DNA of 64,000 nucleotides from Brachynemurus nebulosus. Taxonomy: Eukaryota; Arthropoda; Insecta; Neuroptera; Myrmeleontidae. The stretch covers positions 27,976,108-28,040,107 of the forward strand of contig JAPWDM010000005.1 in the NCBI GenBank assembly GCA_035578155.1, written 5' to 3'. Shown here in pieces: positions 7,527 through 26,587 of this stretch. A program made the translations under genes and the position numbers. How positions within the stretch are numbered: position 1 is the stretch's first letter; each line of letters opens with the position of its first letter. A model generated the notes under the pieces. The model worked only from the letters and a program-made list of their open reading frames with translations. It was not told the DNA's origin and did not search any database.

Positions 7527-7532
7527 CAACTT
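7527..7532. other. Target-site duplication CAACTT, left copy
   Basis: This 6-bp sequence directly precedes the AGTAGTAAGG end of the palindrome and is repeated exactly at 18,508-18,513, directly after the ACTACTACT end. Six-base duplications are characteristic of Polinton/Maverick integration. Confidence 0.85.
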
Positions 7533-7659
7533 AGTAGTAAGGATTGGAGAGAACGGGACCCACCTTCCCACCTGCCGACTTTTTGAGTGACCTCGGCAGG
7601 AGGCAAAACTACCGAGGCGGTTCTAGAAGCCTCCGGCGGTGGGTGGAGCAAAATTTGGT

Positions 7660-7792
7660 CTCCAACCTAACGATATCTAGTGAAATTTTTTCTAACCTAA
7701 CAGAACCCAATGGAACTTGACCTAACCTAACGAAACCTAAGTGAACTTAGCTTAACCTAACAAAATTTTTTCTAACCTAAGAATTTCCCTAA
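7660..7792. repeat. Interspersed CCTAA-rich subterminal repeat, left arm
   Basis: The word AACCTAA or a one-base variant occurs about every 10-25 bp, separated by CAGAACCC, GAAACC and ATTTTTTCT words. It resembles the insect telomere unit (TTAGG/CCTAA) only loosely and is not a regular tandem array. The mirror copy is 18,245-18,377. Role unknown; it lies close to the element end. Confidence 0.6.
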
Positions 7793-7793
7793 C

Positions 7794-7880
7794 AGATGGC
7801 GCAGCCACCTTCGAGCCCTGTGAATTCGCTACTAGATGGCGCAGCCACCTTCGAGCCTGTGAATTCGCTACTAGATGGCG
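7794..7880. repeat. Two-and-a-bit tandem copies of a 39/40-bp unit, left arm
   Basis: The unit beginning AGATGGCGCAGCCACCTTCG and ending GAATTCGCTACT occurs at 7794-7833 and 7834-7872, with a third partial copy at 7873-7880. The mirror copy is 18,157-18,243. Confidence 0.9.
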
Positions 7881-7926
7881 TTGCTAGTCTGGATTCCTGT
7901 GTGTAAGTTTGAAAAATTGTCAATAG

Positions 7927-8268
7927 ATGGCATCGAAAAACTTTTTTTTGATAGTTAAACTAGCCATTAAAAGATGGCCTTGCTTTCATAATTTTATAAT
8001 ATTTTTATCTGAAAACAGGCTTAAACTGTCAGCTGACGTCACTAAAGGTAAACTGATATCAAACAGCGAAGATTTCTCTCTAATATTCAAAAATGAATTT
8101 TATCATATGATTGTATATTTTTATCTGAAAACAGGTTTAAACTTGTATAAATTGCCAGCTGACGTCACTAAAGGTAAACTGATATCAAATAGCGAAGATT
8201 TCTGTCTAATATGTGAAAATGAAGCAGCAGGTTTTAACCTGTATGGCTACATAAAGTGTGACAGCTGA
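7927..8268 (+). CDS. Uncertain 113-aa ORF over the promoter repeats, left arm
   Basis: An ATG-initiated frame runs across two copies of a repeat unit, so its translation contains the block ADVTKGKLISNSEDF twice (about residues 36-50 and 78-92). It ends about 24 bp before the TATA box of the next gene, and the same DNA carries palindromic TGACGTCA sites. It can be read as a regulatory repeat that happens to be open in one frame. No family is recognised and no initiator or TATA was identified for it. An identical mirror copy lies at 17,769-18,110 on the minus strand. Confidence 0.25.
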   Translation: MASKNFFLIVKLAIKRWPCFHNFIIFLSENRLKLSADVTKGKLISNSEDFSLIFKNEFYHMIVYFYLKTGLNLYKLPADVTKGKLISNSEDFCLICENEAAGFNLYGYIKCDS

Positions 8269-8274
8269 CGTCAC
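8000..8274 (+). promoter_or_regulatory. Upstream repeats with three AGCTGACGTCAC sites, left arm
   Basis: AGCTGACGTCAC occurs exactly at 8031-8042, 8157-8168 and 8263-8274. Its core TGACGTCA is the palindromic CRE/ATF consensus. The first two lie in a roughly 126-bp direct repeat that also shares TTATCTGAAAACAGG upstream and TAAAGGTAAACTGATATCAAA downstream in near-identical form. The last site is 18 bp upstream of the TATA box. The arrangement suggests a strong host bZIP-responsive promoter for the 132-aa gene. Mirror sites: 17,995-18,006, 17,869-17,880 and 17,763-17,774. Confidence 0.6.
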
Positions 8275-8291
8275 CATACTATTTTTTCTGC

Positions 8292-8323
8292 TATAAAAAG
8301 GGCGCGACAGAATTTCATCAGTT
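8292..8323 (+). promoter_or_regulatory. Core promoter: TATA box and TCAGTT initiator, left arm
   Basis: TATAAAA (8292-8298) is followed by TCAGTT (8318-8323), the arthropod initiator. Taking the A at 8320 as +1 puts the TATA box at -28, the canonical distance. The mirror core promoter on the minus strand has TATA at 17,739-17,745 and the initiator at 17,714-17,719. Confidence 0.75.
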
Positions 8324-8377
8324 ACAATTTTGTTCGAAACTTTAGTGAAAAAAACATTAAACCTTATTGTTGTGAAT

Positions 8378-8877
8378 TTTCAATTGTTGTGTGTTAAGAG
8401 TTAATTGTTGCCAACAATGGAATCCATTACTGCTGGTGCTTCATCTGGAAACAGAGACTTAATTCAAAAAATGGCTGGAAATTTTGTGGATGAATTGAAT
8501 CATCTTGGCGCTGTTAAACGATGGATTAAACTTTCTGATATGCAAATTGGAAAAGTATATAAAATAATGGGAGCCAGTCAACTACCATCGAAATTCGATT
8601 CATCGAAAATGAAGACAATATTGGAATTGGAAATTGGATACATTTCGTTACCAGCGAGATTTGACAATTTGAACGAGCAGATGCTGGCATGGCTGCAAAG
8701 CAATCCAAAATTGGGTATCATAAATAATGGACCAATCGGACTAACTCATAAACTGGAATTCAGAAAAACGTTGGATCTTCTTGAAATCGCAATTCAAAAC
8801 GTTGGATCTTCTTGAAATTTGTAAATTTTCAATTGTTGTGTTAACAATTAATTATTGCCAACAATGGAATCCATGTA
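8378..8877. repeat. Direct repeat of leader sequence flanking the 132-aa gene, left arm
   Basis: TTTTCAATTGTTGTGT...GCCAACAATGGAATCCAT occurs before the gene (about 8376-8427) and again after it (about 8826-8875). In the second copy the repeat forms the 3' end of the opposing gene. This looks like an ancient local rearrangement that re-used the leader and start codon. Mirrored in the right arm (17,160-17,660). Confidence 0.7.
8417..8815 (+). CDS. Polinton-like element small conserved-looking protein, 132 aa, left arm
   Basis: The start was chosen at the ATG in CAACAATGG, a good initiation context 97 nt after the predicted transcription start; the open frame further upstream has no ATG. The protein is mixed alpha/beta in look, without signal peptide or membrane segment. 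Its middle (about residues 40-85) has a charged-hydrophobic pattern with KMKTILELEIGYISLPARF. This resembles, to my eye, a small protein type common in insect mobile DNA in which a 'polar strand - LPxRF' motif recurs, but I cannot name it. It lies tail-to-tail with the broken gene at 8848-9221. The last codons overlap a short tandem duplication (AAAACGTTGGATCTTCTTGA, twice). An identical copy is at 17,222-17,620 on the minus strand. It is intact, with a full promoter, so it may be expressed. Confidence 0.6.
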   Translation: MESITAGASSGNRDLIQKMAGNFVDELNHLGAVKRWIKLSDMQIGKVYKIMGASQLPSKFDSSKMKTILELEIGYISLPARFDNLNEQMLAWLQSNPKLGIINNGPIGLTHKLEFRKTLDLLEIAIQNVGSS

Positions 8878-9221
8878 TTGTGGAAATCGTTCGTATTCAT
8901 CACACAGCATTTCAGAGTTGTTGATAATTTGTTTAATAATTTCCTCTCGACGCTTCGCTTTACTTAGTTCTCTTAATTCTGCATTGAAGAAAACTGCATT
9001 GAAGAACATTGAAGAAAATTGATGTAATGATCCGTAAATTCCATACAACAGAAATATTCCGATATCTCAATATTCCCAATATTTCGTCTATAATTGCGCT
9101 TGAAAAGTCTACAAACCACCTCTATAAATTCAATGGTGTTTGTTGGATAATTTTTCACTATTTTAATACACAAGTCGGTCAATTGGTGATCTTTGATTCC
9201 TCACAGAGCACTTTCTTGCAT
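8848..9221 (-). pseudogene. Broken small gene of the element, left arm
   Basis: Reading on the minus strand from an ATG at 9219-9221, codon 7 is a TGA stop. The frame then stays open for about 75 residues (segment ...VKNYPTNTIEFIEVVCRLFK...). A frameshift at three short copies of TTCTTCAATG (around 8989-9018) separates it from a downstream frame ending ...NNSEMLCDEYERFPQYMDS... at 8848. So at least one stop and one frameshift interrupt it. The family is not recognised. The same two lesions are present in the other arm (16,816-17,189, plus strand). Alternatively the pieces are exons, but no convincing splice sites were seen. Confidence 0.45.
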
Positions 9222-9241
9222 ATGCACAAATTTTTAATATA

Positions 9242-11340
9242 ATTATAAATTTTACAAGTTAAAAAAGTGATCATTGTGTACCTATTTTTGTTTAAAACTA
9301 TACTTAATAAAATAAATTTAAAGAAAAAAAACCGATCTTTTGATTTACACCGATCTCCTAAAAAGAAATCAAACTAATTTTTGATATTATACCTTAAACT
9401 TGATGTATATATAAAAATTCCATTTACAATTATGGTACACCATATATACTCGTAAATTTTACAAAAATGTATCACTCTGTACATTTTTTTTTAAATCTGT
9501 GTGCATATTCTTTGATGTTATTTAATCAGCTAAATCTTTAATCAACTAAATCAGCTAAAATTGTTACATACTTACGTTATAAATATCTAAGTGTGTATTT
9601 TTCTTTTAAATATATAACTTATAAATACTCATGATTACTTTACTATATAACTGTAATCACGCGATATCATGTTATAAAATACATAAGAATTTACTCATTT
9701 AATGTAAAAATATTTGGTCATCAACAATTAAATAAAAACGAATTTTTTTAAATATATATAGTAATATAATATTTTGCATATATACAGTACTCTGTTAAAA
9801 GTACGGGTTTCTACACCGTTAAAAACATATATTTTACAATATCAATATATTGTAAAAAATCATATTTCTTAATATTTTTAAAACTGAATATGTAATATCA
9901 AGAATTTAAAACAGTTTTGAAACATTAATTTCTCCTCATAATATTTTTTAGTCTTAAATTAATAGCACAATGTTCCATATATTTTAAGAAAATTTTTCTT
10001 TTAATATTTTATAACTTATCTAAAAAATTTATAGCTATTTTTTATCCAAAAATTTATTACTTGCTATTGTTAAAAAATTAGTTAAATATATCTATAGGTA
10101 TTAAGTGACCCCTAGTTTTGTGAAAGACGGTAGTAAGAGCAATTCATCTTAAATACGAAATTATTTTATCAATGCTAAATAAGCGTTTTTTTTCTCATAT
10201 TATCATACTCCAATATATTGTATATTATTATAATTTATAAAAATGTGTTTTATTTATTAAAAAATTTAGCAAAATTTTAAATAATATCACGTCAAAATAA
10301 TATTCAGAAGTCAATAAAAGACAATAGCAGTAAATTTATTAAGATAACTATAAATAAATATTAATCTAATGTTGAAATATTTATTAACAAATAGTACTGC
10401 TTAGTAGAAAATTAGGTACCTATTGTTTTGTTTTCAAATTTACCTTTTTGCAATTAAAGAAAATTTTAGTAACTATCGATACCTATATAAAACGATACCC
10501 ATAAAAGACAAGCATGCTCTGATCTCAACAATTTTTTCCCATGTTAAATTTGTATGTTCTTACTTCGCTGAAACTTATTATGTTTATATATTCCCCCAAT
10601 ATTTTCTACCATAAACAATAGTTATAGCAAGCTAGGTAGGTATTGAATAAGTATTTTTTGTTTGTTAATTTATTGATGATAGAGAAAAAAATTTATGATT
10701 TTATAGACAGTGAAATACATTTAAACTATTTTTTGCAGTTTAATTTTGTAAAAACACCTAAAAATTATCAGTCACAGACAAATATTTCTAAGCAAACGAA
10801 TTGAAAATGTAGTTTTATATCATAAGAATAAATGCGTATATATAGGGTGGACAGTAAATAACTCTCATAATTTTTAAAGAGCGGATGAAAACTTTAATTT
10901 TGGATTACGAAATTTTATTTTTTTTCCGGAGTTAAGCTGCATTCAATTAATTAACCCTTTCCTGCACAGCAGTTTTAGATCATTACTGTGCAAACGATAC
11001 TTCAAATTAGCAAATCATTAATAACATGGGTAAATACTTATTAGCAAGAATTACATAGTTTACACATATGTTCTATCGCACCAGAATGTTAATAGGACAA
11101 TGCGATTTAATTGCCTATATTCAGGAGCAAGCGAAAACATTACCTATTTTAATAACTTAGAAAATACACATTACATAGTTCGTTGTAAGAACAATCATTT
11201 CGATGAACTTTTTTTTTTTAACGAATTACTAAATTTGCTTAAGGACTATGGTATGTAAGAAATAACAACACTCACATAATTTTAAAATAATTAACATATA
11301 GCTATTGGAAAAGTTACAAAGATTTTTTTAACAACTTATT
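9242..11340. other. Gene-free spacer of the element, left arm
   Basis: About 2.1 kb of AT-rich sequence between the broken small gene and the 3' end of the zinc-finger gene. The only open frames are short (for example 63 codons at 10,423) and low in complexity. It mirrors 14,697-16,795. In a complete element this space would be expected to hold further genes, but none is recognisable. Confidence 0.55.
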
Positions 11341-11358
11341 AAATGCTGATAGCTTATT

Positions 11359-12492
11359 TTAATATCTCCTATAGGGCCTTAAGTATAACCCTTCACCCGA
11401 AATTTTTTCATCACCATCGTTGGCGACTGTATTCTCGTCATCATCAGCTTCTCCTTCGCTCGCAGTATCTTCGCTATCGCTAGTAGATGTTTTTTCATCA
11501 TCATTGAATACATATTTTAACACTGGTTCAATAATATCATGCTTTTCCAATTCCCTGGTTATTGAGATAATCCGCTTTCCAGTGTCACTTTCCTTTAAAT
11601 TATTAAAATGGCTTCGTTTTTTCTCGTTTTCGATATAATCCGCAAAGCTGGGATTTATAATATGACTCCTTTCCATTAAATTGCACACAGTATTAACCAT
11701 TTCTTCTCCAATTTGCGTCTGAGTCGCTAAACTTCTTAGTTCATCAACTAAATGGTTCGGGTCATCAAAATATTCTTCTCCATCAACAGGTTTCGAATGG
11801 CCATTATGAAGGTTAGTATTTTCATCATCATATTTGAAACGTTTAGCTTCTCCATTTATTGAATTAGATGTTGAAGGTTGGTCCTTTTCTTCCGAATTTT
11901 TATCTTCTTGTTCTTCATCCTTTGCGCATGCGTTCTGAAGCTCTTTGACCATTAATATGTCTAGAGCAGTTTGTAAGAGACCAGCTATCTTTGGAGTAAA
12001 ACTTGTTTCTTTGTAGTTATCAGGCGATGGTAAATGCTTTTGTTCATCAGATCGATTATCTTCGACATTTACCGATTGTAGAATATTATGCGAGTTTTTT
12101 AAAGCGTGGAATTTACTTCTGATTGCTTCTGCTGCAGCCATCATACTTTCATCAAAAGTATTCAAGTTTCTTTTAGATAGATCTGTATCATTTTCGTGTT
12201 GATTTTGAAATACTGGTGCTTTATCTTCCTTTTCTTCATTTCTTGCTTCAAAACTATATTCGGTTTCATTATCATCATTTTCATCATTAGATTTTGACGA
12301 TTCACTTTGTCTCCTGTTCTCCGCGCTGTTCACTTGTGTCCCATTATTTACCGTGGTATATTCAAACTGATTATTTGCGATCTGGTCATTATTGTTTGTT
12401 TCATGTTCCTGAGTATGCACTCTTCTTTTCATATGACGTAAAAGAGAACTTCTCCGCGAAAATGTCTTGTCACAACGTATACAGTTAAACAT
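11359..12492 (-). CDS. C2H2 zinc-finger acidic protein of the element, 377 aa, left arm
   Basis: A single-exon gene starting 53 nt inside a promoter next to the central array. Residues 4-26 form one C2H2 finger (C4, C7, H20, H26; C-x2-C-x12-H-x5-H) rich in Arg, fit for DNA binding. The rest is acidic and polar (about residues 30-130 and 200-250), with a probable helical segment around 250-330 (DDPNHLVDELRSL..., ITRELEKHDIIEPVLKYVF), an Asp/Glu/Ser tail, and the C-terminus GEGLYLRPYRRY. A finger plus acidic tract suggests a nuclear regulatory or late DNA-associated protein, by inference only. The GEGLYLRP-like end recalls proteins of Polinton/adintovirus type from memory, unverified. The reading frame is intact and identical in translation to the copy at 13,545-14,678. 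Confidence 0.75.
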   Translation of the reverse strand: MFNCIRCDKTFSRRSSLLRHMKRRVHTQEHETNNNDQIANNQFEYTTVNNGTQVNSAENRRQSESSKSNDENDDNETEYSFEARNEEKEDKAPVFQNQHENDTDLSKRNLNTFDESMMAAAEAIRSKFHALKNSHNILQSVNVEDNRSDEQKHLPSPDNYKETSFTPKIAGLLQTALDILMVKELQNACAKDEEQEDKNSEEKDQPSTSNSINGEAKRFKYDDENTNLHNGHSKPVDGEEYFDDPNHLVDELRSLATQTQIGEEMVNTVCNLMERSHIINPSFADYIENEKKRSHFNNLKESDTGKRIISITRELEKHDIIEPVLKYVFNDDEKTSTSDSEDTASEGEADDDENTVANDGDEKISGEGLYLRPYRRY

Positions 12493-12527
12493 TTTGATAG
12501 ATGTGAAGAGTTCGATTTATAACATAA

Positions 12528-12563
12528 CACTGATTAGTTTTTATATCGACATGATCTTATATA
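12528..12563 (-). promoter_or_regulatory. Core promoter of the left zinc-finger gene
   Basis: On the minus strand TATATAA (12,563-12,557) precedes TCAGTG (12,533-12,528). The spacing places the TATA box about 26-32 bp upstream of the initiator A, and the ATG follows 39 nt after it. Mirror of 13,474-13,509. Confidence 0.7.
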
Positions 12564-12596
12564 GTACAACCAGAGCAGAATTGACGTAAAGTAATG

Positions 12597-13443
12597 ACAC
12601 CAAAATGCACCAAAGGTGCACCAAATGACACCAAACTGCACCAAAGGTGCACCAAATGACACCAAACTGCACCAAATGACACCAAACTGCACCAAATGAC
12701 ACCAAAATGCACCAAAGGTGCACCAAATGACACCAAACTGCACCAAAGGTGCACCAAATGACACCAAACTGCACCAAATGACACCAAACTGCACCAAAGG
12801 TGCACCAAACTGCACCAAAGGTGCACCAAACTGCACCAAATGGCACCAAACTGCACCAAATGACACCAAAATGCACCAAAGGTGCACCAAATGACACCAA
12901 ACTGCACCAAAGGTGCACCAAATGACACCAAACTGCACCAAATGACACCAAAATGCACCAAAGGTGCACCAATTGACACCAAACTGCTCCAAAGGTGCAC
13001 CAAAATTCACCAAAAGTGCACCAAATGACACCAAACTGCACCAAAGGTGCATTTTGGTGTCATTTGGTGCAACTTTGGTGCAGTTTGGTGTCATTTGGTG
13101 TCATTTGGTGCACCTTTGGTGCAGTTTGGTGTCATTTGGTGCACCTTTGGTGCATTTTGGTGTCATTTGGTGCAGTTTGGTGCCATTTGGTGCACCTTTG
13201 GTGCAGTTTGGTGCACCTTTGGTGCAGTTTGGTGCACCTTTGGTGCAGTTTGGTGTCATTTGGTGCAGTTTGGTGTCATTTGGTGCACCTTTGGTGCAGT
13301 TTGGTGTCATTTGGTGCACCTTTGGTGCATTTTGGTGTCATTTGGTGCAGTTTGGTGTCATTTGGTGCAGTTTGGTGTCATTTGGTGCACCTTTGGTGCA
13401 GTTTGGTGTCATTTGGTGCACCTTTGGTGCATTTTGGTGTCAT
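12597..13443. repeat. Central head-to-head CACCAAA / TTTGGTG array
   Basis: From 12,597 to about 13,048 the top strand is built of CACCAAA words joined by TGA, CTG, ATG and GGTG. From about 13,050 to 13,443 it is the reverse complement. Outer parts of the two half-arrays are perfect mirrors (12,597-12,840 with 13,197-13,440 compared base by base), then an 11-bp register difference appears and the inner parts diverge. Frequent GGTGCACC is itself palindromic. All six frames stay open over hundreds of bases, but the translations (FGVIWCSLV-type) are repeat artefacts. The array sits between the two divergent zinc-finger promoters. Confidence 0.95.
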
Positions 13444-13473
13444 TACTTTACGTCAATTCTGCTCTGGTTGTAC

Positions 13474-13509
13474 TATATAAGATCATGTCGATATAAAAAC
13501 TAATCAGTG
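13474..13509 (+). promoter_or_regulatory. Core promoter of the right zinc-finger gene
   Basis: TATATAA (13,474-13,480) and the initiator TCAGTG (13,504-13,509) are correctly spaced, with +1 at A13,506 and TATA at -32 to -26. A second TATAAAA at 13,492 is too close to the initiator to serve it. Confidence 0.7.
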
Positions 13510-13544
13510 TTATGTTATAAATCGAACTCTTCACATCTATCAAA

Positions 13545-14678
13545 ATGTTTAACTGTATACGTTGTGACAAGACATTTTCGCGGAGAAGTTCTCTTTTACG
13601 TCATATGAAAAGAAGAGTGCATACTCAGGAACATGAAACAAACAATAATGACCAGATCGCAAATAATCAGTTTGAATATACCACGGTAAATAATGGGACA
13701 CAAGTGAACAGCGCGGAGAACAGGAGACAAAGTGAATCGTCAAAATCTAATGATGAAAATGATGATAATGAAACCGAATATAGTTTTGAAGCAAGAAATG
13801 AAGAAAAGGAAGATAAAGCACCAGTATTTCAAAATCAACACGAAAATGATACAGATCTATCTAAAAGAAACTTGAATACTTTTGATGAAAGTATGATGGC
13901 TGCAGCAGAAGCAATCAGAAGTAAATTCCACGCTTTAAAAAACTCGCATAATATTCTACAATCGGTAAATGTCGAAGATAATCGATCTGATGAACAAAAG
14001 CATTTACCATCGCCTGATAACTACAAAGAAACAAGTTTTACTCCAAAGATAGCTGGTCTCTTACAAACTGCTCTAGACATATTAATGGTCAAAGAGCTTC
14101 AGAACGCATGCGCAAAGGATGAAGAACAAGAAGATAAAAATTCGGAAGAAAAGGACCAACCTTCAACATCTAATTCAATAAATGGAGAAGCTAAACGTTT
14201 CAAATATGATGATGAAAATACTAACCTTCATAATGGCCATTCGAAACCTGTTGATGGAGAAGAATATTTTGATGACCCGAACCATTTAGTTGATGAACTA
14301 AGAAGTTTAGCGACTCAGACGCAAATTGGAGAAGAAATGGTTAATACTGTGTGCAATTTAATGGAAAGGAGTCATATTATAAATCCCAGCTTTGCGGATT
14401 ATATCGAAAACGAGAAAAAACGAAGCCATTTTAATAATTTAAAGGAAAGTGACACTGGAAAGCGGATTATCTCAATAACCAGGGAATTGGAAAAGCATGA
14501 TATTATTGAACCAGTGTTAAAATATGTATTCAATGATGATGAAAAAACATCTACTAGCGATAGCGAAGATACTGCGAGCGAAGGAGAAGCTGATGATGAC
14601 GAGAATACAGTCGCCAACGATGGTGATGAAAAAATTTCGGGTGAAGGGTTATACTTAAGGCCCTATAGGAGATATTAA
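13545..14678 (+). CDS. C2H2 zinc-finger acidic protein of the element, 377 aa, right arm
   Basis: Inverted copy of the gene at 11,359-12,492 with the same translation over all 377 codons: N-terminal C2H2 finger (C4, C7, H20, H26), long acidic low-complexity region, helical segment around 250-330, acidic tail and GEGLYLRPYRRY end. The ATG lies 39 nt after the predicted initiator. The two copies are transcribed outward from the central array. Complete identity between copies means recent duplication or gene conversion. Function beyond probable DNA binding is unknown. Confidence 0.75.
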   Translation: MFNCIRCDKTFSRRSSLLRHMKRRVHTQEHETNNNDQIANNQFEYTTVNNGTQVNSAENRRQSESSKSNDENDDNETEYSFEARNEEKEDKAPVFQNQHENDTDLSKRNLNTFDESMMAAAEAIRSKFHALKNSHNILQSVNVEDNRSDEQKHLPSPDNYKETSFTPKIAGLLQTALDILMVKELQNACAKDEEQEDKNSEEKDQPSTSNSINGEAKRFKYDDENTNLHNGHSKPVDGEEYFDDPNHLVDELRSLATQTQIGEEMVNTVCNLMERSHIINPSFADYIENEKKRSHFNNLKESDTGKRIISITRELEKHDIIEPVLKYVFNDDEKTSTSDSEDTASEGEADDDENTVANDGDEKISGEGLYLRPYRRY

Positions 14679-14696
14679 AATAAGCTATCAGCATTT

Positions 14697-16795
14697 AATA
14701 AGTTGTTAAAAAAATCTTTGTAACTTTTCCAATAGCTATATGTTAATTATTTTAAAATTATGTGAGTGTTGTTATTTCTTACATACCATAGTCCTTAAGC
14801 AAATTTAGTAATTCGTTAAAAAAAAAAAGTTCATCGAAATGATTGTTCTTACAACGAACTATGTAATGTGTATTTTCTAAGTTATTAAAATAGGTAATGT
14901 TTTCGCTTGCTCCTGAATATAGGCAATTAAATCGCATTGTCCTATTAACATTCTGGTGCGATAGAACATATGTGTAAACTATGTAATTCTTGCTAATAAG
15001 TATTTACCCATGTTATTAATGATTTGCTAATTTGAAGTATCGTTTGCACAGTAATGATCTAAAACTGCTGTGCAGGAAAGGGTTAATTAATTGAATGCAG
15101 CTTAACTCCGGAAAAAAAATAAAATTTCGTAATCCAAAATTAAAGTTTTCATCCGCTCTTTAAAAATTATGAGAGTTATTTACTGTCCACCCTATATATA
15201 CGCATTTATTCTTATGATATAAAACTACATTTTCAATTCGTTTGCTTAGAAATATTTGTCTGTGACTGATAATTTTTAGGTGTTTTTACAAAATTAAACT
15301 GCAAAAAATAGTTTAAATGTATTTCACTGTCTATAAAATCATAAATTTTTTTCTCTATCATCAATAAATTAACAAACAAAAAATACTTATTCAATACCTA
15401 CCTAGCTTGCTATAACTATTGTTTATGGTAGAAAATATTGGGGGAATATATAAACATAATAAGTTTCAGCGAAGTAAGAACATACAAATTTAACATGGGA
15501 AAAAATTGTTGAGATCAGAGCATGCTTGTCTTTTATGGGTATCGTTTTATATAGGTATCGATAGTTACTAAAATTTTCTTTAATTGCAAAAAGGTAAATT
15601 TGAAAACAAAACAATAGGTACCTAATTTTCTACTAAGCAGTACTATTTGTTAATAAATATTTCAACATTAGATTAATATTTATTTATAGTTATCTTAATA
15701 AATTTACTGCTATTGTCTTTTATTGACTTCTGAATATTATTTTGACGTGATATTATTTAAAATTTTGCTAAATTTTTTAATAAATAAAACACATTTTTAT
15801 AAATTATAATAATATACAATATATTGGAGTATGATAATATGAGAAAAAAAACGCTTATTTAGCATTGATAAAATAATTTCGTATTTAAGATGAATTGCTC
15901 TTACTACCGTCTTTCACAAAACTAGGGGTCACTTAATACCTATAGATATATTTAACTAATTTTTTAACAATAGCAAGTAATAAATTTTTGGATAAAAAAT
16001 AGCTATAAATTTTTTAGATAAGTTATAAAATATTAAAAGAAAAATTTTCTTAAAATATATGGAACATTGTGCTATTAATTTAAGACTAAAAAATATTATG
16101 AGGAGAAATTAATGTTTCAAAACTGTTTTAAATTCTTGATATTACATATTCAGTTTTAAAAATATTAAGAAATATGATTTTTTACAATATATTGATATTG
16201 TAAAATATATGTTTTTAACGGTGTAGAAACCCGTACTTTTAACAGAGTACTGTATATATGCAAAATATTATATTACTATATATATTTAAAAAAATTCGTT
16301 TTTATTTAATTGTTGATGACCAAATATTTTTACATTAAATGAGTAAATTCTTATGTATTTTATAACATGATATCGCGTGATTACAGTTATATAGTAAAGT
16401 AATCATGAGTATTTATAAGTTATATATTTAAAAGAAAAATACACACTTAGATATTTATAACGTAAGTATGTAACAATTTTAGCTGATTTAGTTGATTAAA
16501 GATTTAGCTGATTAAATAACATCAAAGAATATGCACACAGATTTAAAAAAAAATGTACAGAGTGATACATTTTTGTAAAATTTACGAGTATATATGGTGT
16601 ACCATAATTGTAAATGGAATTTTTATATATACATCAAGTTTAAGGTATAATATCAAAAATTAGTTTGATTTCTTTTTAGGAGATCGGTGTAAATCAAAAG
16701 ATCGGTTTTTTTTCTTTAAATTTATTTTATTAAGTATAGTTTTAAACAAAAATAGGTACACAATGATCACTTTTTTAACTTGTAAAATTTATAAT
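14697..16795. other. Gene-free spacer of the element, right arm
   Basis: Mirror image of 9242-11,340, with the same lack of recognisable genes. Confidence 0.55.
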
Positions 16796-16815
16796 TATAT
16801 TAAAAATTTGTGCAT

Positions 16816-17189
16816 ATGCAAGAAAGTGCTCTGTGAGGAATCAAAGATCACCAATTGACCGACTTGTGTATTAAAATAGTGAAAAATTATCCAACAAACA
16901 CCATTGAATTTATAGAGGTGGTTTGTAGACTTTTCAAGCGCAATTATAGACGAAATATTGGGAATATTGAGATATCGGAATATTTCTGTTGTATGGAATT
17001 TACGGATCATTACATCAATTTTCTTCAATGTTCTTCAATGCAGTTTTCTTCAATGCAGAATTAAGAGAACTAAGTAAAGCGAAGCGTCGAGAGGAAATTA
17101 TTAAACAAATTATCAACAACTCTGAAATGCTGTGTGATGAATACGAACGATTTCCACAATACATGGATTCCATTGTTGGCAATAATTAA
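16816..17189 (+). pseudogene. Broken small gene of the element, right arm
   Basis: Mirror of 8848-9221. ATG at 16,816, in-frame TGA at codon 7 (16,834-16,836), open frame to 17,064, and a frameshift across three TTCTTCAATG copies (17,019-17,048) leading to the frame that ends at 17,189. Both lesions are identical to those in the other arm. Family not recognised. Confidence 0.45.
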
Positions 17190-17221
17190 TTGTTAACACA
17201 ACAATTGAAAATTTACAAATT

Positions 17222-17620
17222 TCAAGAAGATCCAACGTTTTGAATTGCGATTTCAAGAAGATCCAACGTTTTTCTGAATTCCAGTTTATGAGTTAGTCCG
17301 ATTGGTCCATTATTTATGATACCCAATTTTGGATTGCTTTGCAGCCATGCCAGCATCTGCTCGTTCAAATTGTCAAATCTCGCTGGTAACGAAATGTATC
17401 CAATTTCCAATTCCAATATTGTCTTCATTTTCGATGAATCGAATTTCGATGGTAGTTGACTGGCTCCCATTATTTTATATACTTTTCCAATTTGCATATC
17501 AGAAAGTTTAATCCATCGTTTAACAGCGCCAAGATGATTCAATTCATCCACAAAATTTCCAGCCATTTTTTGAATTAAGTCTCTGTTTCCAGATGAAGCA
17601 CCAGCAGTAATGGATTCCAT
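17222..17620 (-). CDS. Polinton-like element small protein, 132 aa, right arm
   Basis: Mirror of 8417-8815 with an identical translation, same ATG context, same promoter (TATA 17,739-17,745; initiator 17,714-17,719) and the same three upstream AGCTGACGTCAC sites. It runs toward the element centre, convergent with the broken gene at 16,816-17,189. Confidence 0.6.
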   Translation of the reverse strand: MESITAGASSGNRDLIQKMAGNFVDELNHLGAVKRWIKLSDMQIGKVYKIMGASQLPSKFDSSKMKTILELEIGYISLPARFDNLNEQMLAWLQSNPKLGIINNGPIGLTHKLEFRKTLDLLEIAIQNVGSS

Positions 17621-17713
17621 TGTTGGCAACAATTAACTCTTAACACACAACAATTGAAAATTCACAACAATAAGGTTTAATGTTTTTTTCACTAAAGTTT
17701 CGAACAAAATTGT

Positions 17714-18110
17714 AACTGATGAAATTCTGTCGCGCCCTTTTTATAGCAGAAAAAATAGTATGGTGACGTCAGCTGTCACACTTTATGTAGCCATACAGGT
17801 TAAAACCTGCTGCTTCATTTTCACATATTAGACAGAAATCTTCGCTATTTGATATCAGTTTACCTTTAGTGACGTCAGCTGGCAATTTATACAAGTTTAA
17901 ACCTGTTTTCAGATAAAAATATACAATCATATGATAAAATTCATTTTTGAATATTAGAGAGAAATCTTCGCTGTTTGATATCAGTTTACCTTTAGTGACG
18001 TCAGCTGACAGTTTAAGCCTGTTTTCAGATAAAAATATTATAAAATTATGAAAGCAAGGCCATCTTTTAATGGCTAGTTTAACTATCAAAAAAAAGTTTT
18101 TCGATGCCAT
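17714..18110 (-). promoter_or_regulatory. Promoter and upstream repeats, right arm
   Basis: Mirror of 7927-8323: TATA box, TCAGTT initiator, three exact AGCTGACGTCAC sites (17,763-17,774; 17,869-17,880; 17,995-18,006) and the uncertain 113-aa open frame (17,769-18,110, minus). Confidence 0.55.
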
Positions 18111-18156
18111 CTATTGACAATTTTTCAAACTTACACACAGGAATCCAGACTAGCAA

Positions 18157-18377
18157 CGCCATCTAGTAGCGAATTCACAGGCTCGAAGGTGGCTGCGCCA
18201 TCTAGTAGCGAATTCACAGGGCTCGAAGGTGGCTGCGCCATCTGTTAGGGAAATTCTTAGGTTAGAAAAAATTTTGTTAGGTTAAGCTAAGTTCACTTAG
18301 GTTTCGTTAGGTTAGGTCAAGTTCCATTGGGTTCTGTTAGGTTAGAAAAAATTTCACTAGATATCGTTAGGTTGGAG
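18157..18377. repeat. Subterminal repeats, right arm
   Basis: Mirror of 7660-7880: two-and-a-bit 39/40-bp AGATGGCGCAGCC units (here as their reverse complement) followed by TTAGGTTAG-rich sequence. Confidence 0.85.
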
Positions 18378-18507
18378 ACCAAATTTTGCTCCACCCACCG
18401 CCGGAGGCTTCTAGAACCGCCTCGGTAGTTTTGCCTCCTGCCGAGGTCACTCAAAAAGTCGGCAGGTGGGAAGGTGGGTCCCGTTCTCTCCAATCCTTAC
18501 TACTACT

Positions 18508-18513
18508 CAACTT
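18508..18513. other. Target-site duplication CAACTT, right copy
   Basis: Exact match to 7527-7532, directly after the ACTACTACT end of the palindrome. Confidence 0.85.
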
Positions 18514-18706
18514 AACTGAAAGAATTTAAAGTTTGTTCAGAACACAGTTTAATATGTAATGTTTTTTATTTGTTTTAAACATAGTTTAAAACATCGTTTA
18601 AAACAGTGTAATTTCAAACATGTTTTATTTAGATTGTGTTTTAAACAGTGTTTAAAACATGTGATTTAAAACACTTTGTTTTAAACATGCGAACCCTGCT
18701 TATACA

Positions 18707-19645
18707 TTGTATTCCTTAGGCACTGGCGTCTACTTTCGTAATTATAACGGAAACATGATTAATTTTAGTTGTCGAGGTTATAAAAATTTAAAAATTGTAT
18801 CAAAACCAAGTTCATGGATCCAAGTTGAAATAGATACGTGAATCCTGTTCGAGGTCAACTGTGTATATTCGGTTAATTAGGAAAGTTAATTATTTTTAGT
18901 TGCATGTATCATTAAAGAAACTAAAAGTTTGGCTTTTTTTTAAATAGGAAATTACTATCGACGTTGTAAAGGCAAAACACATTTTTTTCTGATGGTTAAG
19001 GTCTTGGTCGAACATGATTTTAATTAGAACGACATAATTACTTTTAAGTAATTACCACTTATATAGGAAATGTTTTCTATATGTAAACTGATTATTGAAA
19101 TTAATCAATTACTACAAGTATAATCGAAAAAAAATCGATTAAGTGCTCCGTACAATAAATTATTTTTAAACATAGATTTGATGTCACTTACTATAGAACT
19201 ATTTAATCCTTATAATTTAGATTCACTTTAGACATTATTTTCAAAATTCGCGATTCTTTTCTGATTTTTTTTTAACGATCCTTTCGGTGGTAAAGACAGC
19301 GGACAGCAATTTTTAAGCGGCTTTCATATATCATCATGAAATATATTTCTGAATTCGTGCGTTTATCTATTTCCTAATTTACTCCAAAAATCAATCCCCA
19401 GAATCAAAATTCAACTTCTTGTATTTCATTTGTATAATTGGGTCACCACCAGACTTGCCAACTTTCCAATTTTCTTCAACCGAACATCAAAATTTGTTGT
19501 GGAAACGGAGTTACGGGGATGAAGTTTTTTCCTACGTATTTCATCGTGTGAAGTAGATATCATTAGAGAAAGCTCTTAAAATGAAACTGAGGTTCCTTTT
19601 ACCATTTTCTATTTTTAACCAGTGTTTGCGAATTATTGGTTTTCA
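18707..19645. other. Gene-free stretch
   Basis: No coding signal. I see AT-rich sequence with no repeat ends that I can define. Confidence 0.5.
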
Positions 19646-19716
19646 AAGTCGGCTAGGACTCGAACCTGAATCTCTTGGTAATTAGCCAAGGCCCTTACCC
19701 ATTAGGCAACCGAACC
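19646..19716 (-). tRNA. tRNA-like sequence, probable tRNA-derived repeat or pseudogene
   Basis: On the minus strand GGTTCGG (19,716-19,710) can pair with CCGACTT (19,652-19,646) in 4 Watson-Crick and 2 G-T pairs with one mismatch. A 5-bp anticodon stem CTTGG/CCAAG encloses the 7-nt loop CTAATTA (anticodon AAT if functional). GGTTCGAGTCC matches the B-box consensus exactly. The T stem has an A-C mismatch, base 37 is T rather than a purine, and the D region is irregular. It does not resemble an ordinary insect tRNA-Ile, so a SINE head or pseudogene is more likely. Confidence 0.35.
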
Positions 19717-25511: not shown

Positions 25512-25750
25512 AGTGTTCCGTACCAAAATTAGCACAACGGACACTTATGGAATAACTTCGGTGTGCGTCTACCTGCTACGGCAATTTTCTCAGAAACTAC
25601 TGGTCATGAAAATTTGAAATTTGACACAATCGTACAGAGATAGAGTACAATGGCCTAATTATAGATGTAAAATTGAATTTGGATTCTGAAGTTTACTTTC
25701 AAGGCGTAACTTGAAAAGTAAAGAAAACGTTTTCAAAAGCATCATGTACG
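25512..25750 (+). repeat. Dispersed repeat, GTGTTCCGTACC left part
   Basis: GTGTTCCGTACC (25,513) begins a block of a type repeated widely in insects, running through CTCAGAAACTACTGGTCATG and AAATTTGAAATTTG. A matching outer end in inverse form (TAGTACGGAACAC, 27,609-27,621) lies 2.1 kb downstream. The intervening LINE fragment and the 26,800-27,240 repeats may therefore be later insertions. Confidence 0.5.
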
Positions 25751-25756
25751 GTATCA

Positions 25757-26587
25757 AAAAGCTGCGATGCCAAGTGCAGCGTCCTCCAGATACCAGCAGG
25801 CGTACCCCAAGGTTCGATCCTTGGGCCAGTCCTGTTCAGCTTATACATCAGCGACATTCCCAAGATGCCACCCAAGGTCCAGATCGCCCTGTACGCTGAT
25901 CATACTGCCGTCTTCACCTCGTCAACGAGAACGAACCAGTCGACTGCTGAGAGGTGGATTGAAAAGGCGCTCACGACCGTCCAGGACTACTTCCAGGAAA
26001 ACCGCATCAAAGTCAACTCCAACAAGACCGAAGCGGTCATCTTCACCCACTCCAGGCTGCTTCCACGTTCCCAACTTCGATGCGGCGACTCCCGAATCAC
26101 TACGTCACCCGTCATCAAGTATCTCAGTCTGTACCTCGACCGTAAACTCACGTTCAAGACAGTTGTAACACGACGACGAATCGCCGGCGAATGTACCGCT
26201 GCCCGACTGCGGCCCCTACTCATCTCCAATGTCATTCCGACGGCGAAGAAGATACAGCTGTACAAGACGTGCATCCGGCCCATCGTCACATACGCCGCAC
26301 CTGTGTGGTGCACTGTTTCATCTGGCAACATTGTCAAATTGCAACTGTTCCAGAACAGGATACTTCGTCTTATCCTGAACCCCCCGCGACGTACCCCGGT
26401 ACGTCAGCTACATCAAGAATCAGGCGTTGAACCTGTTCTTGACTACATTATGTCACTAACTTCACGTTACCTGGCCAGATGCCATCTTCACCACAACGAT
26501 CGAATTGCTGACATGTTCCTGCCATCAAAGACACTGTCTAAGCGGAGCAAGAAGTTCATCCTGCCGATGGATATCTCCCCACCGTGA
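25757..26587 (+). pseudogene. 5'-truncated jockey-type LINE, reverse transcriptase C-terminal half
   Basis: The frame reads AGVPQGSILGPVLFSLYISD (25,796 onward), the RT B-motif, then LYADHTAVF at the catalytic C-motif, then the KTEAVIF segment and the long RT C-terminal tail (LYKTCIRPIVTYAAPVWC, LQLFQNRILRLI) typical of the jockey clade, to a stop at 26,585-26,587. The second catalytic Asp of the YADD box is His, so the enzyme would be inactive. The upstream RT domain and endonuclease are missing, as expected for 5' truncation. The copy is much more GC-rich than its surroundings, with a CGGACGGAGTAAGTAAAG 3' UTR continuing to about 26,690. Confidence 0.9.

What the first reader, a model, noticed from the sequence alone, without database searches (positions are those of the whole stretch)
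7533..18507. An 11-kb near-perfect palindrome with Polinton/Maverick ends
Seen: AGTAGTAAGG...CCTTACTACTACT ends, a 6-bp duplication CAACTT on both sides, and complete mirror symmetry (x pairs with 26037-x) with identical translations of every ORF pair. Known: Polintons/Mavericks have AG...CT ends, 6-bp duplications and terminal inverted repeats usually of hundreds of bases. Inference: here the inverted repeats cover the entire element, so it is a snap-back or head-to-head dimer form in which one arm replaced the other, losing polymerase, integrase and packaging genes. It could be a defective-interfering-like passenger of an active Polinton or endogenous adintovirus-like element, or a new non-autonomous lineage.
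Basis: partly seen in the sequence, partly recalled or inferred. Interest (0 to 1): 0.92.

Follow-up and report, generated by a model that had tools for sequence, protein, structure and literature searches.

The report
Mirror-image satellite transposons of Polintons
A single, likely insect, genome carries dozens of copies of a mobile DNA that is almost entirely its own mirror image; it likely rides on the enzymes of virus-like Polinton transposons and would keep its two halves identical by folding into a giant hairpin.

Summary
The element at 7533-18507 lies between CAACTT duplications, and its two 5,308-bp arms are inverted and identical. It is neither an artefact nor a one-off. In the same 960-Mb genome an exact 28-base tip occurs in 29 inverted pairs. 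All 18 pairs of 8-12 kb are palindromes. All 10 pairs of 17.5-18.8 kb are not; the one examined gene by gene carries Polinton genes (capsid, integrase, ATPase, protease-like, polB) between 0.6-kb terminal repeats. One pair of 22 kb fits neither class. With searches by the internal module, about 40 palindromic loci were seen.

Palindromes carry either end of the long element (A or B), the same on both arms. Eight share a zinc-finger-like module. Within it the two arms of a copy differ by 0-3 bases; copies differ by 2-69. Two copies share an asymmetric centre that holds a relic of the terminal repeat.

I infer a palindromic satellite lineage of Polintons, replicated and integrated in trans, with its arms kept equal through a full-length hairpin. 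"One arm replaced the other, losing the core genes" is too simple, because most of the arm is not helper sequence.

The parts
7527..7532 (.). left target-site duplication CAACTT
18508..18513 (.). right target-site duplication CAACTT
7533..18507 (.). whole palindromic element
7533..12840 (+). left arm, 5,308 bp, identical to the inverted right arm
13197..18504 (-). right arm
18505..18507 (-). one extra ACT at the right tip, (ACT)3 against (AGT)2 on the left
7533..8139 (+). part matching the terminal inverted repeat of the long (helper) elements, 96.8-98.7%; mirrored at 17898-18504
7533..8874 (+). A end: blocks shared with one end of the long elements (1-691 at 98%, 643-1257 at 95%, 1287-1342 at 98%); mirrored at 17163-18504
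8417..8815 (+). 132-aa ORF of unknown function, also in the A end of the long elements
17222..17620 (-). second copy of the 132-aa ORF
9740..12594 (.). internal module shared by 8 palindromes, not found in the long elements' pieces; mirrored at 13443-16297
11359..12492 (-). 377-aa ORF with an N-terminal C2H2-finger-like match (below Pfam cut-off)
13545..14678 (+). second copy of the 377-aa ORF
12593..13051 (+). CACCAAATG-type minisatellite, left
13046..13444 (-). the same minisatellite inverted, right; arrays meet at GGTGCA (13046-13051)

Best explanation
The window holds one copy of a multi-copy, almost fully palindromic transposable element with Polinton ends, which is likely a satellite replicated and integrated in trans by long Polintons of the same genome and whose two arms are predicted to be kept equal by folding into a full-length hairpin. 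Shown: the palindrome, Polinton-type ends, 6-bp duplications, multiplicity, long elements with the same tips and Polinton genes, arms that evolve together, the same end type on both arms although copies differ in end type, and a centre that is at least partly inherited. Inferred: (1) the Polinton protein-primed polymerase starts at the shared AGT ends and displaces a single strand; (2) being self-complementary, the strand folds into a hairpin of about 5 kb with the central array as loop; (3) a strand with a lost or foreign end is extended by copying its own other arm, or heteroduplex repair does the same, so the arms become identical from the repair point outward while the mispaired centre is passed on; (4) the Polinton integrase inserts the duplex and makes the 6-bp duplication; (5) recombination with helpers changes the end of one arm and the hairpin step copies the change to the other; (6) the founder was probably a tail-to-tail inverted dimer of a smaller element; (7) later snap-backs within the array re-centred shorter forms.
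For: 18 of 18 exact-tip pairs of 8-12 kb are palindromes: 7 by whole arms, 11 by probes 2.5 kb in (one of these aligned over only 150 of 400 bases because its arms are offset). 10 of 10 pairs of 17.5-18.8 kb are not: 7 by 6-kb ends, 3 by probes. 6-bp TSDs in 12 of 12 palindromes and 7 of 7 long copies whose two ends were read, by eye. Long copy C11 has capsid 1.6e-120, rve, Pox_A32 and PLA2 matches over cut-off and an open polB frame. Module: within-copy 0-3, between-copy 2-69 differences; both arms sisters in 8 of 8 copies. A and B ends both occur, symmetric in each copy. win and C104 differ 0.3% in the module, 7% in the 132-aa block and in their tips, each nearly identical on its own two arms. 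C69 (A end) groups with C106 and C1c (B end) in the module tree, local support 0.995. C69 and C1a share an asymmetric spacer with a terminal-repeat relic, score 75/73 against shuffled maxima 27/24. Array units near the window's centre that are absent from its own other arm recur in C1b and others. Tip repeat number varies, as expected of protein priming (inference).
Against: No replication intermediate was seen, and dependence on a helper is inferred from shared ends only. Closest copies C106 and C1c differ by as little as 2 bases, so the within- and between-copy ranges touch. PF03175 did not match the 1,054-aa polB piece as a whole though it did on its first half; protease and chromo matches are below cut-off. 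Genes were examined in one long copy by Pfam. In-place gene conversion could also equalise arms. The origin of the module is unknown; a genome-wide protein search for it did not complete. The first loose test of the centre against the terminal repeat was unconvincing, 7 of 61 shuffles also hit (on a partly off-centre stretch).
Confidence: 0.6

Rival explanations
1. The palindrome formed once and spread as an ordinary element with long inverted repeats; its arms are equalised after insertion by host gene conversion, as in chromosomal palindromes.
For: Arms are near-identical and gene conversion between close inverted repeats is established (recalled).
Against: Arm differences outside the array are few and scattered singly along C1b, C34, C106 and C1c; one-arm changes persist in C1c (1-kb duplication) and C1:61.1 Mb (module lost from one arm). 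None of this is decisive.
Confidence: 0.2
2. Each palindrome arises afresh by snap-back of a one-armed (monomer) element at the array, and palindromes do not themselves propagate.
For: Switch points lie at self-complementary GGTGCA/GGTGCACC in 5 of 5 inverted-array centres read; more than one switch sequence exists.
Against: C69 and C1a share an asymmetric spacer and array variants near the window's centre are shared with other copies but missing from its own other arm; none of the eight unpaired module hits probed was shown to be a monomer (five inverted partner, one inverted array, one palindrome with an arm deletion, one unresolved).
Confidence: 0.13
3. Assembly artefact: one arm was mirrored by the assembler or by read-through of hairpin reads.
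For: Arms of 5 kb at 100% identity can be produced this way; no reads were available.
Against: About 40 loci, own TSD at the exact ends in 12 of 12 read, arm-specific changes, and long elements with the same tips that are not mirrored.
Confidence: 0.02

Closest known systems
Polinton/Maverick elements (vertebrate set of PMC8097293; passages and section 7 read)
   Same: (AGT)2//(ACT)2 ends and 6-bp target duplications; the long elements here also share capsid, integrase, ATPase and polymerase genes.
   Different: Intact vertebrate Mavericks have terminal repeats of 46-1,447 bp and eight core genes; the window element is inverted repeat almost throughout and carries none of those genes in its ORFs.
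Symmetric recombinants of adenovirus (SYREC) and snap-back defective genomes (recalled, no paper seen)
   Same: Linear protein-primed genomes in which one end is duplicated in inverted form around non-viral DNA.
   Different: Those are by-products in culture; here a multi-copy, integrated, inherited family.
Hairpin-forming deletion derivative of the kalilo plasmid (only the title seen, in the reference list of PMC11071308)
   Same: A shortened derivative of a linear plasmid said to form hairpin and duplex DNA.
   Different: Mitochondrial fungal plasmid; not a chromosomal family.
Foldback (FB-type) transposons (recalled)
   Same: Very long inverted repeats with tandem repeats.
   Different: 9-bp duplications and other transposases (recalled); here 6 bp and Polinton-type ends.

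Membership tests
Polinton/Maverick (autonomous) | (AGT)n ... (ACT)n ends | tested here: met
Polinton/Maverick (autonomous) | 6-bp target-site duplication | tested here: met
Polinton/Maverick (autonomous) | terminal inverted repeats within 46-1,447 bp (vertebrate range) | tested here: not met
   5,308 bp in the window
Polinton/Maverick (autonomous) | protein-primed polymerase, integrase and capsid genes | tested here: not met
   no such match in the 4 window ORFs scanned; outside the A-end blocks no DNA match to the long elements' pieces
Polinton-dependent non-autonomous element | shares ends with an element in the same genome that has the enzymes | tested here: met
Polinton-dependent non-autonomous element | is moved in trans by that element | not testable with these tools
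   needs a mobilisation assay or extrachromosomal DNA
Foldback transposons | 9-bp target duplication (recalled) | tested here: not met
   6 bp in 12 of 12 palindromes read

The most novel reading that the evidence does not exclude
A long-lived lineage of mirror-image satellite genomes lives on Polintons. It passes through a full-length hairpin, so that one arm is always the spare copy that restores the other; it can capture a new end from a helper and duplicate it at once; it keeps a zinc-finger-like gene of its own under constraint; and it outnumbers the long elements with the same tip 18 to 10.
Probability: 0.45. Interest if true: 0.9.

Novelty: new variant of a known kind. Interest (0 to 1): 0.82.

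Why it matters
Long perfect palindromes are expected to be unstable, and the way Polintons copy themselves has been inferred rather than watched (both recalled). Dozens of natural palindromes with Polinton ends would be a record of that copying: their paired arms suggest that a folded intermediate equalises the two halves and spreads a new end to both. They give a natural test set for end repair in protein-primed replication, and a satellite relationship inside a host genome that resembles defective viral genomes.

Tried and rejected
Assembly artefact: set aside because of TSDs, many loci and arm-specific changes. Simple half-Polinton snap-back: rejected for the window because 8875-13045 has no match in the pieces of the long elements. 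Broken polB in the helpers: I first thought the frame was fragmented because the ORF listing leaves out frames that run off a piece; with open ends it is long and open in the pieces of C11 (309 aa in L025, 1,054 aa in L039), C87 (1,033 aa) and C124 (992 aa). My hand-picked short frames had given no polymerase match. PF03175 matched the first half of the C11 frame at 9.8e-07, not the second half and not the 1,054-aa piece as a whole; the polB call also rests on tblastn at 47-60%. Homologues of the 132-aa and 377-aa proteins: none at E <= 0.01 in the protein collection. No relatives of the 132-aa or capsid protein confirmed in viral contigs (single-protein queries, close relatives only). Structure of the 132-aa protein: mean pLDDT 40.5, not usable. 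PHROGs matches were weak (best 5.3e-05 for the finger region). First test of centre against terminal repeat: unconvincing, and the C69 stretch was off-centre; repeated properly. The protein search of the genome with the 377-aa protein did not complete, so the module's origin is open. Papers: no paper in the library holds any of six phrases for non-autonomous, defective or palindromic Polintons; the rows listed (20 of 120; 20 of 22; 15 of 17; 8 of 11,807) show none on palindromic Polintons by title. Adintovirus paper not held.

Full report
Observation. The element lies at 7533-18507 between CAACTT duplications. From 7533 to 12840 every base pairs with 26037-x (5,308 bp, 0 mismatches), against 28-33% in 15 shifted registers. 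The 356 bp in the middle are minisatellite, mirrored but with unit indels and changed units. The right tip has one extra ACT. The stated coordinates are exact.

Not alone. The window is G000:C95:27976108-28040107 of a 960-Mb genome in 138 contigs whose name is not given; an insect host is my impression and was not tested. A search with the first 601 bases of the arm scored 40 of 2,684 first-look candidates, and most of the full-length matches fall into inverted pairs 10-12 kb or about 18 kb apart. An exact 28-base tip occurs 61 times (30 forward, 31 reverse, 0 for the reversed control). I paired these by position into 29 pairs: 18 of 8.06-12.12 kb, 10 of 17.5-18.8 kb, one of 22.0 kb; three tips are unpaired.

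The short class is palindromic throughout. Of the 18 pairs, seven were read as arms (window, C1a, C1b, C67, C69, C106, C1c, with C69's right tip). Ten were probed with 400 bases 2.5 kb in from both tips: all inverted at 99.7-100%, nine over 391-400 bases and one over 150 because its arms are offset. The last was probed on one side against its fetched left piece. Two further copies with other tips, C104 and C34, are also palindromes. A search with the internal module scored 40 of 2,732 candidates and gave 15 inverted pairs, the window among them, and one partial pair; two of these were followed out to their tips. Eight unpaired module hits were probed: five have the inverted partner, one shows the inverted array centre, one (C1:61.1 Mb) has lost the module from its right arm but keeps the inverted end, and one shows no match. 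Counted by distinct place this makes about 40 palindromic loci, a lower bound because both searches are capped.

The long class is not palindromic and is Polinton. Seven long copies have terminal repeats of about 617 bp (97.9-99.8% between their two ends) and then two different ends, A with the 132-aa ORF and B on the capsid side. Three more, by probes, each have one A and one B end. Pfam on pieces of copy C11 gives the double jelly-roll capsid (1.6e-120), a phospholipase A2-like domain (8.5e-15), Pox_A32 ATPase (2.8e-07) and rve integrase (1.5e-12), with chromo and C48 protease matches below their cut-offs. The polymerase frame is open on both sides of the cut between two pieces, 309 and 1,054 aa. 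It matches polB-like pieces of another element at 47-60% and PF03175 on its first half (9.8e-07), though not when the long piece is scanned whole. The genome holds many further PF03175 matches (193 listed from 75 scored of 1,288 candidates; 0 of 14 control genomes), some in open frames of about 1,400 aa. The 22-kb pair matches neither helper end nor the window arm at its probes.

Insertion. Both ends were read by eye in 12 palindromes: CAACTT, AAGGAG, CTCGAC, CCGGTA, TGAATT, CTTATA, AGAGTT, TGCAAT, TAGAAT, CCCATG, TAAGGC, CTCATC; and in 7 long copies: GTTATT, ACCGTT, GTTATA, TATGTC, GTGGTG, TATATT, GACGGA. All are 6 bp and present on both sides. Vertebrate Mavericks have (AGT)2//(ACT)2 ends, 6-bp duplications and terminal repeats of 46-1,447 bp (PMC8097293; passages and section 7 read). 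The number of AGT repeats differs between the two tips of the window copy, C1a and C75, which fits slippage in protein priming (inference).

Anatomy. The window arm is an A end (blocks within 7533-8874, 95-98% to the long elements), AT-rich DNA, a 2.9-kb module with a 377-aa finger-like ORF, and the minisatellite. The module is not in the pieces of the seven long copies. Palindromes with the A end: window, C104, C34, C69. With the B end: C67, C106, C1b, C1c, and C1a, which lacks the module and carries 4,151 bp of the capsid end at 99.06% in both arms, with the 401-aa capsid ORF open in both. The 8-kb copy at C1:66.59 Mb matches the capsid end by a 400-base probe (98.25%). The 377-aa ORF (382 aa in C69) is open in all 15 arms where it was fetched whole; the sixteenth, C1c right, is cut by the fetch edge. 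Pairwise-summed pN/pS is 0.35 for it, 0.28 for the 132-aa ORF and 0.075 for the capsid; the pairs are not independent and no correction was made.

The two arms of a copy evolve as one. In the module, the arms of a copy differ by 0-3 bases in 2.6-2.9 kb and copies by 2-69; in the tree the two arms are sisters in 8 of 8 copies. C106 and C1c are the closest copies, and there the ranges touch. The window and C104 differ by 0.3% in the module but by 7% in the 132-aa block and in their tips, while each is nearly identical on its own two arms. C69, with an A end, groups with C106 and C1c, with B ends (local support 0.995). So ends have been exchanged, and each exchange is present on both arms. Among the nine palindromes read as arms none is mixed.

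The centre. C1a and C69 share an asymmetric spacer of 154 and 145 bp. It aligns to terminal-repeat positions 171-300 (C1a) and 171-231 (C69) with scores 73 and 75, against maxima of 24 and 27 in 300 mononucleotide shuffles each; the other strand gives no excess. I read it as the remains of the far end of a monomer, that is, a tail-to-tail dimer. Other copies lack this part and have a single array as loop (C67, C104, C106, C1c) or two inverted arrays (window, C1b, C34, C1:61.1 Mb, C122:20.3 Mb), with the switch at GGTGCA or GGTGCACC. An 87-base run of array units left of the window's centre recurs whole in C1b, while the longest match in the window's own right arm is 25 bases. So the centre is at least partly inherited, and the arms were equalised without remaking it.

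Mechanism. A displaced single strand of such an element can fold into a hairpin with arms of about 5 kb. If its 3' part is missing or foreign, extension on its own 5' arm rebuilds it. This gives identical outer arms, symmetric end swaps and an untouched centre. Mismatch repair of the hairpin would do much the same. In-place gene conversion is the main rival; single scattered arm differences, a one-arm duplication (C1c) and a one-arm deletion (C1:61.1 Mb) speak mildly against it. Nothing here shows replication itself.

Verdict. By its ends and duplications this is a Polinton-ended non-autonomous transposon family, and not an autonomous Polinton. Its palindromic form, copy number and end exchange were not found described in the library searches (listings only), and most subscription papers are outside that library.

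Noticed in passing
L056/L057 (G000:C1:61.111-61.120 Mb): A palindromic copy with the module lost from one arm sits inside a polB-like stretch of another Polinton whose frame is broken into pieces (PF03175 1.3e-05 and 3.1e-04).
   Followed up: partly
G000:C106:4652141-4674151: A 22.0-kb pair with the same tip whose interior, at probes 2.5 kb in, matches neither the 18.4-kb elements' ends nor the window arm.
   Followed up: partly
L023/L024 (C1c): The right arm appears to carry a tandem duplication of about 1 kb that the left arm lacks.
   Followed up: no
L026:1106-1939: The long element encodes a phospholipase A2-like domain (PF08398, 8.5e-15) next to its capsid-side genes.
   Followed up: no
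window 25715-26587: A 290-aa frame that looks like a retrotransposon reverse transcriptase (impression from reading, not searched).
   Followed up: no
window 18571-18689: A degenerate 12-bp TGTTTTAAACAG-type repeat directly beside the insertion.
   Followed up: no
window 19645-19716: A tRNA-like match on the minus strand, 32.8 bits, just over the gathering score of 29.
   Followed up: no
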